Part shown: positions 47,127 to 51,024 of the stretch, piece by piece | Layout of the letters: each line of letters opens with the position of its first letter | Numbering within the stretch: position 1 is the stretch's first letter | From: Flavobacterium sp. KMS | GTDB taxonomy: Bacteria > Bacteroidota > Bacteroidia > Flavobacteriales > Flavobacteriaceae | Assembly: GCF_000813005.1 (NCBI RefSeq) | Contig: NZ_JSYP01000003.1 | Location: 62,001 to 126,000 of the forward strand | DNA: 64,000 nt | Direction: 5' to 3' | The notes under the pieces: model-generated | Databases searched by the model: none | Told to the model about the DNA's origin: nothing | Seen by the model: only the letters and a program-made list of their open reading frames with translations | Made by a program: the position numbers and the translations under genes

Positions 47127-47302
47127 AACTAGGATTATAGCTTTATATCTTGCTAAAATAAGCAAGAAAATTTAGATAACAATAGTTAAATATTTCAATA
47201 ATTTTAAAAATGAAAACTATCACGAATTTAATTCGATTAGTTACATTTGTTGAAATAAAAATTAATACCAGAAAATTATCTATTATCCAAAAACTGAAAT
47301 TC

Positions 47303-48958
47303 ATGAAAAAATGTTTTAGCGTTATCTTTTTCGCAGCATTTGTTTTTAATTACGCAAGTGCACAAGGGCTTCTCAATAAGTCCGAAACTGCCTTTACAAG
47401 ACAAGATACCTTACGCGGTAGTATTACCAAAGAGAGAGCTTGGTGGGATTTAAAATACTACCATTTAGATGTAAAAGTAAATCCAAAAGATAGTACGATT
47501 ACGGGATCAAACACTATACGATATACCGTTTTGCAGGATTACAACAAAATGCAAATCGATTTGCAAAAACCAATGAATATCTACAAAGTTATCCAGGATG
47601 GTAAAGAATTAAAATTTGAAAGAGAAGGAAATGCTTTTTTTGTTCAATTAACGGCAAGCCAAAAAGTTGGCGAAGTAAAAGAAATAAAAGTATTTTTTGG
47701 AGGTAAACCAAAAGTTGCGGTAAGACCACCATGGGATGGAGGAATTACTTGGAAAAAAGATAGCAAAGGCAATGATTTTATCGCCTCATCATGCCAAGGA
47801 TTAGGCGCTAGCGTTTGGTGGCCTTGCAAGGATCATATGTATGATGAAGTCGAAAATATGCTTATTAGTGTAAACGTTCCGGGACATTTAATGGATGTTT
47901 CTAATGGTCGTTTGCAAAGCGTAAAAAAATTAAAAGACGGTACAAAAACGTATAACTGGTACGTTGCAAACCCAATTAATAATTACGGAGTAAACATAAA
48001 TGTTGGAGATTACGTTAATTTCTCAGAAAAATATAAAGGAGAAAAAGGCGATCTGGATTGTAACTATTATGTTTTAAGAGAAAACTTAGAAAAAGCCAAA
48101 ATACAATTTAAAGACGCACCAAGAATGCTTAAAGCCTTTGAGCACTGGTTTGGCCCTTATCCTTTTTACGAAGACAGTTATAAACTGGTAGAAGCTCCTT
48201 ATTTAGGAATGGAACACCAAAGTAGTGTAACTTATGGTAATGAATATAAAAATGGTTATCTGGGACGTGATTTAAGCGGAACAGGTTGGGGATTAAAATT
48301 TGACTTTATCATTATTCATGAATCAGGACATGAATGGTTTGCTAATAATATTACCTATAAAGACATTGCTGATATGTGGGTTCACGAAAGTTTTACCAAC
48401 TATTCCGAAAGCCTGTTTGTAGAATATTATTATGGTAAAGACGCTGGTGCAGAATATGTAAGAGGTTGCCGAAAAGTTATTCGTAATGACAAACCAATCA
48501 TTGGTAATTATGAGGTAAACAATGAAGGTTCTGGCGATATGTACCAAAAAGGAGCCAATATGTTGCATACAATACGTCAGTTAGTAAATAATGATGAAAA
48601 ATGGAGAGCTATTTTAAGAGGATTAAATGCTACATTTTATCACCAAACAGTTACGACACAACAAATAGAAGATTATATGAGTAAAGAAGCAGGAATAAAC
48701 TTAACTCCAGTATTTAATCAATATTTAAGAACAACGATGATCCCAACATTAGAGTATTACTTTAAAGGAGAGCATTTAACATATCGTTGGTCAAATGCAG
48801 TGGCAGGATTTAATATGCCAATAAAAGTTACTCTAAACGGTGTTGAAACTTGGTTAAAACCAGTTGCCGAATGGAGTAATCTAAAAGTAGAATCTGGAAA
48901 AACAGATTTAAAATTAGATATCAATTTTTATGTTTCTGAATTCAATATTACAAAATAA
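47303..48958 (+). CDS. M1-family zinc metallopeptidase, exported
   Basis: A gluzincin aminopeptidase-like enzyme, 551 residues from the ATG at 47303. That start gives the signal peptide MKKCFSVIFFAAFVFNYASAQ; the open frame begins at 47210, but the extra 31 residues would bury the signal. The N-terminal saddle domain is followed by the catalytic core with MEHQSSVTYGN (in place of GAMEN), HEXXH as HESGH (48317-48331), and the third ligand Glu in WVHESFTNYSE. The short C-terminal part lacks the long ERAP-type helical domain. A perfect terminator follows. Confidence 0.92.
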   Translation: MKKCFSVIFFAAFVFNYASAQGLLNKSETAFTRQDTLRGSITKERAWWDLKYYHLDVKVNPKDSTITGSNTIRYTVLQDYNKMQIDLQKPMNIYKVIQDGKELKFEREGNAFFVQLTASQKVGEVKEIKVFFGGKPKVAVRPPWDGGITWKKDSKGNDFIASSCQGLGASVWWPCKDHMYDEVENMLISVNVPGHLMDVSNGRLQSVKKLKDGTKTYNWYVANPINNYGVNINVGDYVNFSEKYKGEKGDLDCNYYVLRENLEKAKIQFKDAPRMLKAFEHWFGPYPFYEDSYKLVEAPYLGMEHQSSVTYGNEYKNGYLGRDLSGTGWGLKFDFIIIHESGHEWFANNITYKDIADMWVHESFTNYSESLFVEYYYGKDAGAEYVRGCRKVIRNDKPIIGNYEVNNEGSGDMYQKGANMLHTIRQLVNNDEKWRAILRGLNATFYHQTVTTQQIEDYMSKEAGINLTPVFNQYLRTTMIPTLEYYFKGEHLTYRWSNAVAGFNMPIKVTLNGVETWLKPVAEWSNLKVESGKTDLKLDINFYVSEFNITK

Positions 48959-48980
48959 GAATTTACATAAAACCTATACA

Positions 48981-49008
48981 AAGGCTTCCAAATTGGAAGC
49001 CTTTTTTT
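48981..49008 (+). terminator. Terminator of the M1 peptidase gene
   Basis: AAGGCTTCCAATTTGGAAGCC-type hairpin: arms AAGGCTTCC (48981-48989) and GGAAGCCTT (48995-49003), then a T-run to 49008. Confidence 0.92.
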
Positions 49009-49186
49009 ATTGAGAATAATTTAAGATTTTTTACTATAAAACTATTATTTGTTATAAAACTTACAAATTAATTATGTTATGTTAATTATTTTTATAATTT
49101 AGATTAGCTAAACATTTATCTATTAGCAAATTAAAAAGCGTAATCCGAAAAGCTAAAGAGTAGGAAAAAATCAAATTATTACAATT

Positions 49187-49396
49187 ATGAAAAATTTAAA
49201 AAACCTAAAAAATGTTGAAATTATTAGTAATAACGCTCAAAAATTAATATTTGGAGGTGTTAAACTTCCATACGTAAATCCTACAATTGGTTTATGCGAT
49301 AGATTATGTGGAGAAGCTGGAGGAGTACTATCTAATACACCAGGAAAAGGAGATGTTTGTTTGCAAGGAACATCAACATGCTGTTATTGCAGATAA
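49187..49396 (+). CDS. Small Cys-rich peptide with Bacteroidota GG-type leader
   Basis: A 69-residue peptide. The N-terminal 24 residues (MKNLKNLKNVEIISNNAQKL, then IFGG) look like the double-glycine leaders of Bacteroidota bacteriocin-like or ribosomal natural-product precursors. Cleavage after GG would leave a 45-residue core VKLPYVNPTIGLCDRLCG and onward with six Cys, Gly-rich, ending CCYCR. Six Cys fit three disulfides or thioether bridges. No PCAT-type ABC transporter, radical-SAM or lanthipeptide synthetase gene lies in the window. Product and role are unknown. The upstream 228 bases show only AT-rich DNA and a terminator. Confidence 0.75.
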   Translation: MKNLKNLKNVEIISNNAQKLIFGGVKLPYVNPTIGLCDRLCGEAGGVLSNTPGKGDVCLQGTSTCCYCR

Positions 49397-49405
49397 AATA
49401 GACTC

Positions 49406-49474
49406 AAAGGTTCTGAGGTTCTAAGTTACAAAGGTTTAAAATCTTTTAAATTTTCTTAGTACCTCAGAACCTTT
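49406..49474. terminator. Shared convergent hairpin from word repeats
   Basis: A 20-base arm (49406-49425) pairs with 49455-49474 at 19 of 20 positions around an inner AT-rich TTAAAATCTTTTAA palindrome. It likely stops transcription from both the peptide gene and the opposing 514-residue gene. The right arm is exactly shared with 32922-32941. Confidence 0.7.
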
Positions 49475-49479
49475 TCTCT

Positions 49480-51024
49480 TTATCTATTAATAAGCTTCGC
49501 TTTTTCTCTCATGATATCGGCTATTTTTCGATTCTCGATTTTGCTTTCAAGCCACGAAATAATATCCAAGTATAAAAATGCTCTTTTTTCGTAAGTGTTT
49601 TTTTCCAACTCGATAAAACGCTCACGCATCTTTATAAATTCCTTTTTAATATCGTTAGGGTAGAAGTTATTTAGGTTCTTTAAAAACTTAATTATCTCTT
49701 TTTGTACTTCGTGTAAGTCATTCATTTTTAATAAAAACTTATACGTGTTCTTCAATTGATTTTCTAAGTAATAATCTTTCCCTAATTCATAATGAACAAT
49801 AAGGCATAATATTCGGGAGAAACACATTAAATCTTCACGCATTGTAAGATTCTTATTGTTTATGATTTTCTCTAAATAAAATATAGATTCATTATACTTT
49901 TCGTTACCAAAATAAATACAAGCAATTTTATAGTAAAACAACATCTCGTGATGTTCATCAAGATGCTCACTATGAAGTTTTATTTTATCTAATATTTCTG
50001 GAATTAAATATTCGCTTTCAGCAAAAGACGCATCAAGAATATGATAGTTCAGTTTATTGTTATACAAATATAAGAACGATAACGAAGCCACATTATCATT
50101 TACAGGAAAACGCGGATCATTAATGGTTTCTTCTAATAAAGATAGGTATTTCTTAAAATTAGATTTGTATTTCAACATATACAGCGACTCCAGGAAATAA
50201 TGGTTTCCTTTTAAAAAGAATACAGGATTTAAGAAAATCATATTTGGATTATCGTAAAACAACGTAACCCATTTATAGGCATATTTATAACTTGCCAAGA
50301 AATCCTGAACCAAGAAACTACGCCATAAATTGGCATTATAAAACCAATATTTTTCGCGGAAACCAAACTTACTTTCGTCTAATTTGGCAATATGTTTATT
50401 AAAATAATCATCGATGTATTTATATTCCTCATCACTCTTTACATAACCCGTTTTTAGCATTATACCATATAGCTGTAGCGAAAGATTAGAAAGTTTACTA
50501 GAAATAGTATTACGGTAATTTAATTCTTTGGCCTGAATAACCAATTCGTCGGCACGACCTTGAATACTTCGTGTAATATATTGAGACTCGATTAATTTCT
50601 CGAACTCAACAATTTCATACGCCATATACTTTTCGTCATTCTCTAAAGCTTGCTGTTTGGTTTTATCCAAAATTTTCAAACTCTGTTTATACAACCCTTT
50701 ATTATAAAGAATAGCAGCAAAATCAATTTGTTCACGTAACTGATAACGAATGTTCTGGCTAGGAATATTCAACCGAATACTAACCAGAATTTGCTTGTAT
50801 AAATACGATTTAAGGTTTGATAATTGTACTTTTTTAATAATTCCGCTTTTCAAAATAAGCTTCTCATCATAGCTTTCAGACTTATCTAAAATATTGAAGA
50901 GCTCGATAAATTTTGTATTTGAGCTAGTTTCTAATCGACTAGCAAAAATCTTGAATTGTCTTTTTTCGGATTTGGAAAGGGACTTTATTAATACAAATAA
51001 AAAATCTTTTTGATGGTTAGCCAT
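49480..51024 (-). CDS. Conserved helical-repeat protein of unknown function, 514 residues
   Basis: I do not recognise a named family. The protein is soluble, without a signal peptide, and almost wholly alpha-helical. The pattern of amphipathic helices (for example AILYNKGLYKQSLKILDKTKQQA and KIACIYFGNEKYNESIFYLEKII) is that of TPR-like repeats. The N-terminus FLFVLIKSLSKSEKRQFKIFASR is a distinctive basic helix. It converges on the small Cys-rich peptide gene and shares its terminator, but nothing links the two functionally. Probably a scaffold or regulator. Confidence 0.7.
   Translation of the reverse strand: MANHQKDFLFVLIKSLSKSEKRQFKIFASRLETSSNTKFIELFNILDKSESYDEKLILKSGIIKKVQLSNLKSYLYKQILVSIRLNIPSQNIRYQLREQIDFAAILYNKGLYKQSLKILDKTKQQALENDEKYMAYEIVEFEKLIESQYITRSIQGRADELVIQAKELNYRNTISSKLSNLSLQLYGIMLKTGYVKSDEEYKYIDDYFNKHIAKLDESKFGFREKYWFYNANLWRSFLVQDFLASYKYAYKWVTLFYDNPNMIFLNPVFFLKGNHYFLESLYMLKYKSNFKKYLSLLEETINDPRFPVNDNVASLSFLYLYNNKLNYHILDASFAESEYLIPEILDKIKLHSEHLDEHHEMLFYYKIACIYFGNEKYNESIFYLEKIINNKNLTMREDLMCFSRILCLIVHYELGKDYYLENQLKNTYKFLLKMNDLHEVQKEIIKFLKNLNNFYPNDIKKEFIKMRERFIELEKNTYEKRAFLYLDIISWLESKIENRKIADIMREKAKLINR

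What the first reader, a model, noticed from the sequence alone, without database searches (positions are those of the whole stretch)
49187..49396. Orphan six-cysteine peptide with GG leader
Seen: N-terminal NLKNVEIISNNAQKLIFGG, then a Gly- and Cys-rich core ending CCYCR. Bacteroidota bacteriocin-like and RiPP precursors have leaders of this kind, usually near a C39-peptidase ABC transporter or a modifying enzyme. None is in the 64 kb. Either export is provided in trans or the peptide has another role. The Cys spacing (C-x3-C, then C, then C-C-x-C) is not one I recognise.
Basis: partly seen in the sequence, partly recalled or inferred. Interest (0 to 1): 0.68.

Follow-up and report, generated by a model that had tools for sequence, protein, structure and literature searches.

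The report
Orphan secreted peptide under pseudoknot RNA
A small cysteine-rich peptide gene in Flavobacterium is real and conserved, probably exported by a transporter encoded elsewhere in the genome, and is preceded by a folded RNA element of unknown trigger that also stands before other secreted-peptide genes.

Summary
The ORF is real. Homologues with the GG-type leader and all six cysteines occur in 11 of 199 genus genomes, own genome included, and at 20 named Flavobacterium loci. The core is under strong purifying selection (pN/pS 0.071, leader 0.228). The gene stands alone at one fixed site (both neighbours kept in 18 of 20 named loci); no exporter or maturation protein was found beside it.

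(1) The genome has four full C39 exporters. One exporter group is in all 11 peptide genomes; GG peptides of the same leader type precede it in three genomes, and VKOR disulfide-forming proteins are encoded at exporter loci. Export in trans with disulfides is the best reading; lanthipeptide modification is not supported. (2) The 5' region is a DUF805b RNA (Rfam, 44.5 bits against 35.6), above cut-off at 19 of 20 named loci. Over 84 copies it covaries as an H-type pseudoknot. It precedes GG-leader genes in 12 of 92 cases and lies upstream of C39 exporters 6 times, 0.15 expected.

Activity and RNA trigger are unknown.

The parts
48975..49009 (+). Terminator-like repeat behind the upstream M1-peptidase gene, which separates the peptide gene from it
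   Evidence: Stem 48980-49004 plus T run, 1 found against a mean of 0.2 in shuffles; inverted repeat
49135..49166 (+). DUF805b RNA element (Rfam RF02914) in the presumed 5' UTR; stem 49137-49139 with 49152-49154, pseudoknot 49144-49146 (TCC) with 49163-49165 (GGA)
   Evidence: 44.5 bits, gathering score 35.6; pairs covary over 84 elements; above cut-off at 19 of 20 named loci
49187..49258 (+). Double-glycine leader, 24 residues
   Evidence: leader profile; G23 invariant and G24 kept in 22 of 23 aligned sequences
49259..49393 (+). Six-cysteine core, 45 residues (stop codon 49394-49396)
   Evidence: pN/pS 0.071
49406..49474 (.). 20-nt inverted repeat with a 29-nt spacer behind the peptide gene, possibly a two-way terminator shared with the converging gene
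   Evidence: 95% complementary; not listed by the terminator scan, which allows loops of 3-8 only
47210..48958 (+). M1-family metallopeptidase, left neighbour (not part of the system)
   Evidence: Pfam PF01433; present in 19 of 20 named loci
49480..51024 (-). 514-aa protein of unknown function, right neighbour (not part of the system)
   Evidence: no Pfam family at E 0.001; present in 19 of 20 named loci

Best explanation
The gene is a stand-alone unit for a secreted, disulfide-bonded, bacteriocin-like double-glycine peptide. Transcription starts in the A+T-rich stretch before 49135 (inferred); the mRNA leader folds into the DUF805b pseudoknot, whose last base lies 20 nt before the start codon, and this probably gates translation in answer to an unknown cue (inferred; the fold itself is supported by covariation). 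The 69-aa precursor is cut after Gly24 and exported by a C39-peptidase ABC transporter encoded elsewhere, most likely the C11 exporter or its 96%-identical twin at C19 (inferred). The six cysteines are oxidised to three disulfides, probably by the VKOR-type protein of the exporter loci (inferred). The mature peptide of about 45 residues acts outside the cell. I put antimicrobial action against neighbours at about 0.4, signalling or self-directed action at 0.35, and another envelope role at 0.25.
For: Conserved family; core more constrained than leader. Leader of the exporter-linked class: first of 117 window ORFs, 0 of 20,000 shuffles. Four full C39 exporters in the genome; C39 in 11 of 11 peptide genomes against 86 of 199 in the genus sample, those 11 included; one exporter group in all 11 (30 of the 34 C39 matches clustered). 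GG peptides of the same MKNLKNLKG.. / MKKLKNLAG.. type lie directly before an exporter of that group in three genomes, G449, G448 and G580; G580 also has the orphan. VKOR proteins at the C11, C19, G449 and G425 exporter loci. DUF805b match, above cut-off upstream of the peptide at 19 of 20 named loci (the twentieth, L071, has the element by eye), covarying pseudoknot. DUF805b matches also precede the precursors of five C39 operons in five genomes (the G453 match, 34.8 bits, is below cut-off). Published bacteroidetocin loci pair a C39 exporter with a thiol oxidoreductase and a GG peptide with four cysteines (passages of PMC6671954).
Against: No transcription, export or activity data. No immunity gene beside the peptide was recognised. 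The C11 exporter's contig has no DUF805b match at E 0.1, so the likeliest exporter and the peptide are not under the same RNA. The core shows no relation to exporter-linked cores (hhalign probability 1.2; Cys-fixed shuffles, lowest 86 of 2000 in 24 comparisons). Folding models are weak (pLDDT 62.5 and 69.1) with no PDB match. The single RNA is not unusually stable (z 1.13; pseudoknots are not modelled there). Two of the five pair measures exceed the shuffles only modestly (23 and 13 of 500 shuffles reach them).
Confidence: 0.6

Rival explanations
1. A secreted signal (pheromone-like) or self-acting peptide, exported by the same C39 route, kept constant because its receptor is the producer's own.
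For: Core nearly invariant, no second copy of the core in the own genome, fixed chromosomal site, no recognised immunity gene, RNA element upstream.
Against: No receptor was recognised beside it; an exporter-linked peptide core (IPECW type) is about as constant (87% mean column identity over 8 sequences, against 89% over 23), so constancy does not separate the two roles; absent with the flanks adjacent in 12 of 20 relatives examined, so it is dispensable.
Confidence: 0.3
2. A lanthipeptide or other RiPP precursor modified in trans by the LanB/LanC set at C19, whose precursor also has a DUF805b element.
For: Same RNA element; Ser/Thr and Cys in the core; LanB N and C parts and LanC present.
Against: No lanthipeptide leader match while the C19 precursor has one; the variants L074 and L075 keep six Cys but have only four Ser/Thr in the core; no linked maturation protein in the window or 20 named loci.
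Confidence: 0.1
3. A bacterial defensin-like (CS-alpha-beta) fold: C37-x3-C41 in a helix bound to C66-x-C68 in the last strand, with C58-C65 as third bond.
For: Both models give a helix and then three strands, with C-x3-C in the helix and C-x-C in the last strand. The C-x3-C / C-x-C signature of that fold is recalled, not from a call.
Against: pLDDT 69 only; no Foldseek or VIA match; two such spacings among six Cys are not rare by chance.
Confidence: 0.15
4. Not an expressed peptide: a conserved stretch that matters only as RNA.
For: The element before the ORF is more conserved than the DNA further upstream.
Against: Codon-level selection on the ORF (pN/pS 0.071 and 0.228); gaps between homologues keep the frame.
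Confidence: 0.03

Closest known systems
Bacteroidetocins (PMC6671954; passages read)
   Same: Bacteroidota GG-leader peptide of similar core length (42-48 aa for those described in the passages, 45 here), cysteine-containing; exporters are C39-type ABC proteins with an oxidoreductase partner
   Different: Bacteroidetocins A and B have four Cys, a 15-aa leader and their exporter, membrane protein and oxidoreductase beside them; here six Cys in another pattern, a 24-aa leader and no such neighbours. No sequence comparison with them was run.
Orphan GG peptides of pneumococcus and their PCAT exporters (PMC7018657; passages read)
   Same: GG peptides without an associated transporter are described; recognition by leader positions -15, -12, -7, -4 for ComAB/BlpAB
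   Different: Other phylum; here six Cys and an RNA element upstream
NCBIfam NF047798 'leader_Chryseo', bacteriocin-like protein
   Same: GG-leader type; 12 of 23 family members hit it, best E 0.015
   Different: The window peptide itself has no hit; no member was shown above the curated cut-off
DUF805b RNA (Rfam RF02914)
   Same: Full-length match above the gathering score
   Different: The structure line that cmscan prints shows only the nested stem; the pseudoknot and the association with GG peptides were worked out here. Whether the original description has either could not be checked.

Membership tests
DUF805b RNA (RF02914) | Covariance-model score above gathering cut-off | tested here: met
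   44.5 against 35.6 bits, positions 1-35 of 35
DUF805b RNA (RF02914) | Cis position: shortly upstream of a gene on the same strand | tested here: met
   20 nt between the element's last base (49166) and the ATG at 49187; 18-32 nt from GAGTA to ATG in 90 of 91 loci, 71 in one. Transcription of the element not tested
Double-glycine peptides exported by C39-peptidase ABC transporters | GG-type leader with the class motif | tested here: met
   family leader
Double-glycine peptides exported by C39-peptidase ABC transporters | A C39 exporter in the same genome | tested here: met
Double-glycine peptides exported by C39-peptidase ABC transporters | Exporter in the same gene cluster | tested here: not met
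   orphan GG peptides without a linked exporter are described (PMC7018657)
Double-glycine peptides exported by C39-peptidase ABC transporters | Cleavage after GG and export | not testable with these tools
   needs mass spectrometry
Class I lanthipeptide | Lanthipeptide leader (NF038153 or NF038158) | tested here: not met
   no match for the window peptide or the 23 members
Class I lanthipeptide | LanB/LanC linked to the precursor | tested here: not met
   no match in the window or 20 named loci; a LanBC set was seen at C19
TIGR04149-type rSAM RiPP | Leader above curated cut-off | tested here: not met
   not among the matches
Bacteroidetocin | Linked exporter, membrane protein and oxidoreductase | tested here: not met
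   no exporter or VKOR in the window or 20 named loci
Bacteroidetocin | Sequence relation to bacteroidetocins | not tested
   no direct comparison was run
Lactococcin G-beta (PF11632) | Score above gathering cut-off | tested here: not met
   17.3 against 29.4 bits, residues 1-34, that is the leader plus 10 core residues
CS-alpha-beta (defensin-like) fold | Fold match to a solved member | tested here: inconclusive
   no match, model confidence low

The most novel reading that the evidence does not exclude
DUF805b is a small pseudoknot riboswitch or RNA sensor that controls a secreted-peptide regulon across Flavobacteriaceae: stand-alone GG peptides such as this one and the precursors of lanthipeptide, radical-SAM and other C39 operons. 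The family found here would be its most compact reporter, and its mature product a three-disulfide peptide with a cysteine pattern not found in the libraries searched.
Probability: 0.4. Interest if true: 0.78.

Novelty: new variant of a known kind. Interest (0 to 1): 0.55.

Why it matters
DUF805b is, as far as I recall, an RNA motif without an assigned ligand or role. Tying it to GG-leader peptide genes and C39 operons gives it a testable physiology, and gives orphan secreted peptides of Flavobacterium a handle on when they are made. The peptide is a six-cysteine family with no above-cut-off match in the Pfam and NCBIfam copies searched, whose export can be tested against one shared exporter.

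Tried and rejected
Lanthipeptide in trans: rejected as main reading because of leader and Ser/Thr counts.

Core homology with exporter-linked peptides (suggested by EAG-x-VL and C-x-C resemblances): profile probability 1.2, Cys-fixed shuffles not significant in 24 comparisons, lowest 86 of 2000. Rejected.

Relatives outside the genus: single-sequence search of 397 family genomes gave matches at E 1 in 57, own genome included; apart from the self match the best was E 0.0045. The core profile gave 6 of 397 at E 0.1, own genome included, best other E 0.004 in a 39-aa frame. Treated as chance or leader resemblance. Phage records: no match at E 1.

Solved structures: one PDB sequence match at E 1.6, taken as chance; fold searches without a match.

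Sigma-70 scan: 6 promoter-like sites against 4.0 in shuffles, uninformative; a Bacteroidota-type promoter was looked for by eye only.

Literature: 'DUF805b' 0 papers; 'DUF805' 8 papers, none on the RNA by its title; the 2017 RNA-motif paper that I recalled is not held; the listings showed nothing on this peptide by title. Only passages of PMC6671954 and PMC7018657 were read.

Full report
Observation. Window 49187-49396 encodes 69 residues, MKNLKNLKNVEIISNNAQKLIFGG followed by a 45-residue core with six Cys. It stands alone: the upstream M1-peptidase gene (Pfam PF01433) is followed by a terminator-like stem at 48980-49004, and a 20-nt inverted repeat lies behind the ORF at 49406-49474.

Family. 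Eleven of 199 genus genomes, the own genome included, have a homologue at E 2.6e-18 or better; the 7 others of the 18 listed at E 0.1 have only weak matches (best E 0.00225), some of them to GG-leader peptides by their leader. A second collection gave 20 named loci, nearly all titled Flavobacterium, from F. hydatis (99%) to F. pectinovorum (68%); several are the same genomes under another name. In 23 distinct aligned sequences C37, C41, C58, C65, C66, C68 and G23 are invariant; G24 is G in all but L061. Over 18 sequences (window, L056-L072) mean pS/pN is 0.577/0.041 for the last 43 codons of the core (ratio 0.071) and 0.510/0.116 for the leader (0.228); L073-L075 and the unnamed loci were not in this count.

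Site and history. The M1 gene is upstream in 19 of 20 named loci (not L061), the 514-aa gene downstream in 19 of 20 (not L056), both in 18; behind the 514-aa gene follow HMGL-like, isopropylmalate-dehydrogenase-like and dihydroxy-acid-dehydratase-like genes (Pfam on the window's copies). Eight exporter and maturation proteins (C39 exporter, VKOR and HlyD of C11; LanB N and C parts and LanC of C19; the G453 radical-SAM protein; the G425 DUF6734 protein) have no tblastn match at E 1e-3 in the window or the 20 named loci, while the exporter and VKOR queries found their own loci. These loci are 9-12 kb, so a gene further away would be missed. Among 20 genomes without a peptide match, 12 have the M1 and 514-aa genes adjacent, 84-326 nt apart, with no element and no ORF of 35 aa or more on that strand between them (pattern hits in three lie inside the M1 gene); of the other 8, six show no M1 gene within 1.5 kb and two only a distant M1 match. 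On a tree of the 514-aa gene (40 rows; L056 had none) presence needs 7 changes, 3 of them forced by well-supported branches, against 13.7 in shuffles. This fits an old gene at one site, lost repeatedly; repeated gain at the same site is not excluded.

Export. The own genome has four full C39 ABC exporters and one partial C39 match in a VKOR-type protein. The C11 exporter lies behind ten GG-type peptide ORFs. All 11 peptide genomes have C39 exporters, 1 to 7 each; 86 of 199 genus genomes do, but kinship and genome size confound this. Thirty of the 34 exporter matches in the 11 genomes were clustered (the other four had no locus): one group, joined at 75% identity or more, is present in all 11 and includes C11 and C19 of the own genome. 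Peptides with the orphan's leader type sit immediately before an exporter of this group in G449, G448 and G580; group membership of the G449 and G448 exporters rests on 250-283 residues, 78-95% identical. G580 also carries the orphan. A 14-position profile from 19 exporter-linked leaders ranks the orphan first of 117 window ORFs, 17.5 bits against 7.9 for the next; 0 of 20,000 shuffles reach it, the best shuffle being 16.1. C11 and C19 exporters are 96% identical (28 differences); 26 of the 28, counted by eye on the printed alignment, lie in the first 120 residues, which hold most of the C39 domain: the leader-reading part has diverged while the transporter body is nearly unchanged.

Disulfides. 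VKOR proteins, some with a thioredoxin domain, are encoded at C11 (533 aa), C19 (535 aa), and the G449 and G425 exporter loci. Bacteroidetocin loci likewise have a thiol oxidoreductase, said there to be likely to make the disulfides (PMC6671954, passages). Six invariant Cys fit three disulfides; this is inference.

The RNA. The DNA alignment of 11 homologous loci shows a conserved block before the ORF. It is Rfam RF02914, DUF805b, 44.5 bits against a gathering score of 35.6, the only gathering-level match in the 64 kb. It is above the gathering score just upstream of the peptide at 19 of 20 named loci; L071 has none above it but shows the element by eye. The own genome has 5 matches above cut-off and 14 at E 0.1. 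In 61 genus genomes 42 have a match at E 1e-6, 36 above cut-off; in 249 family genomes, 123 at E 1e-7 and 117 above cut-off. The 14 control genomes had none above cut-off in these three searches; at E 0.1, 7 of 14 had weak matches.

Structure. Of the 115 rows (28 of them below the gathering score by my count) I examined 96, plus one weaker own-genome match, 97 loci in all; the 19 left out are among the weakest. A pattern for the core of the element found it in 94 (not in L126, L223, L225); 84 distinct elements remained. Besides the Rfam stem, the NCC before GAAAA pairs with GGN' after GAGTA (for example GCC-GGC 31, TCC-GGA 9, GCC-GGT 9, TCT-AGA 3, CCC-GGG 2, GCT-AGC 2, CTC-GAG 1, ATC-GAT 1, CCT-AGG 1; 11 elements are unpaired at the outer position and 2 at the inner one). 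On the MAFFT alignment 90.6% of cells pair (65.3% in shuffles, 0 of 500 as high) and the covariation score is 0.618 against 0.182 (0 of 500); all 7 pairs change on both sides, but shuffles reach that in 23 of 500 and the number of pair types in 13 of 500; sliding the partners drops pairing to 49% or less. Selection of elements by pattern fixes part of the 5' pseudoknot letters (C or T) but not the 3' partner, and related elements are not independent. This makes it an H-type pseudoknot of about 35 nt, whose GAGTA ends 18-32 nt before the start codon in 90 of 91 loci and 71 nt in one. cmscan prints only the stem; whether the original description has the pseudoknot could not be checked.

What it precedes. 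Of 92 downstream ORFs in 46 clusters, 13 score 7.8 or more with the leader profile; one, L188, is a TM2 protein (PF05154) and is dropped, leaving 12 GG-leader precursors in 7 clusters, 3 of the 12 being the orphan family itself and two (L090, L225) behind matches below the gathering score. The next score is 1.6. Of 254 background ORFs (window plus seven own-genome loci) only the orphan scores 8 or more; own-genome loci L098, L102, L103 and the exporter loci L108-L110 were left out of that background, L098 and L103 holding DUF805b-led GG precursors. In 30 loci from other genera of the family, the best match of each of 30 genomes, the count is 3 of 30 against 0 of 197 other ORFs there. Six of 115 matches lie within 8 kb upstream of a C39 exporter on the same strand, in 5 operons of 5 genomes; 0.15 expected, Poisson P 1.4e-8 (five of the six are above cut-off; related genomes are not independent, and the C39 list was cut at its weak end). 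These operons are lanthipeptide-type (own C19: LanB in two parts, LanC, VKOR, C39, HlyD; G437: LanC; G469: LanB and LanC; C19 and G469 precursors match NF038153), radical-SAM/SPASM (G453) and DUF6734-containing (G425). Other targets include DUF805 and DUF1843 proteins and many that look like membrane or signal-peptide proteins by eye, so the element is not specific to peptides.

Interpretation. Shown: a conserved, selected GG-leader peptide family at one site, a C39 exporter group in every one of the 11 genomes that has it, and a structured RNA element in front that also stands before other GG-peptide genes. Inferred: cleavage after GG, export in trans by C11 or C19, disulfide formation, translational gating by the pseudoknot. 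Unknown: activity and cue. The C11 contig has no DUF805b match, so exporter and peptide need not be co-regulated; C19 has one. Constancy of the core does not prove a signal, since an exporter-linked core is about as constant.

Structure of the peptide. AlphaFold gives a helix and three strands with low confidence (pLDDT 62.5 whole, 69.1 core) and no PDB match. C-x3-C in the helix and C-x-C in the last strand recall the CS-alpha-beta arrangement; this is a lead from memory only.

Verdict. The peptide is a new, orphan member of the exported GG peptides that may work like, but is not shown to be, a bacteroidetocin. The less expected result is the pseudoknot RNA that links it to other secreted-peptide genes.

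Noticed in passing
G000:C11 (L110:10255-12447) and G000:C19 (L098:2397-4589): Two C39 exporters of the same genome are 96% identical; 26 of 28 differences (counted by eye) lie in the first 120 residues, mostly the C39 peptidase domain, as if substrate reading had been exchanged or had diverged while the transporter body was kept or converted.
   Followed up: partly
L195 (G468:C16:195866) and L196 (G403:C7:187164): A second stand-alone GG-leader peptide family (MKNFQNLSALQKLSKEELKSINGG..) with a DUF805b element and no exporter-like gene recognised in 7 kb.
   Followed up: partly
L102 = G000:C2:209000-219000, elements at 214299 and 214543: Two DUF805b-like elements (both below the gathering score) 244 nt apart, each before a 57-58-aa peptide without GG leader (the 57-aa one is DUF1843), followed by a protein that looks like a radical-SAM enzyme by its start sequence.
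   Followed up: partly
G179 and G195: Two Flavobacteriaceae genomes with 18 and 21 DUF805b matches; the others listed with matches have 1 to 8.
   Followed up: no
L260-L289: Many DUF805b targets outside Flavobacterium look like signal-peptide, lipoprotein or GG-leader proteins by eye; the element may mark exported proteins in general.
   Followed up: no
L149, L147, L153, L155, L159, L152, L255, L256: A constant exporter-linked six-Cys GG peptide (core IPECW..RLCC), 87% mean column identity over 8 sequences.
   Followed up: partly
L064:1823-1900 (-): A Flavo-1 RNA (RF01705, 80.3 bits) about 4 kb upstream of the peptide gene in F. shii.
   Followed up: no
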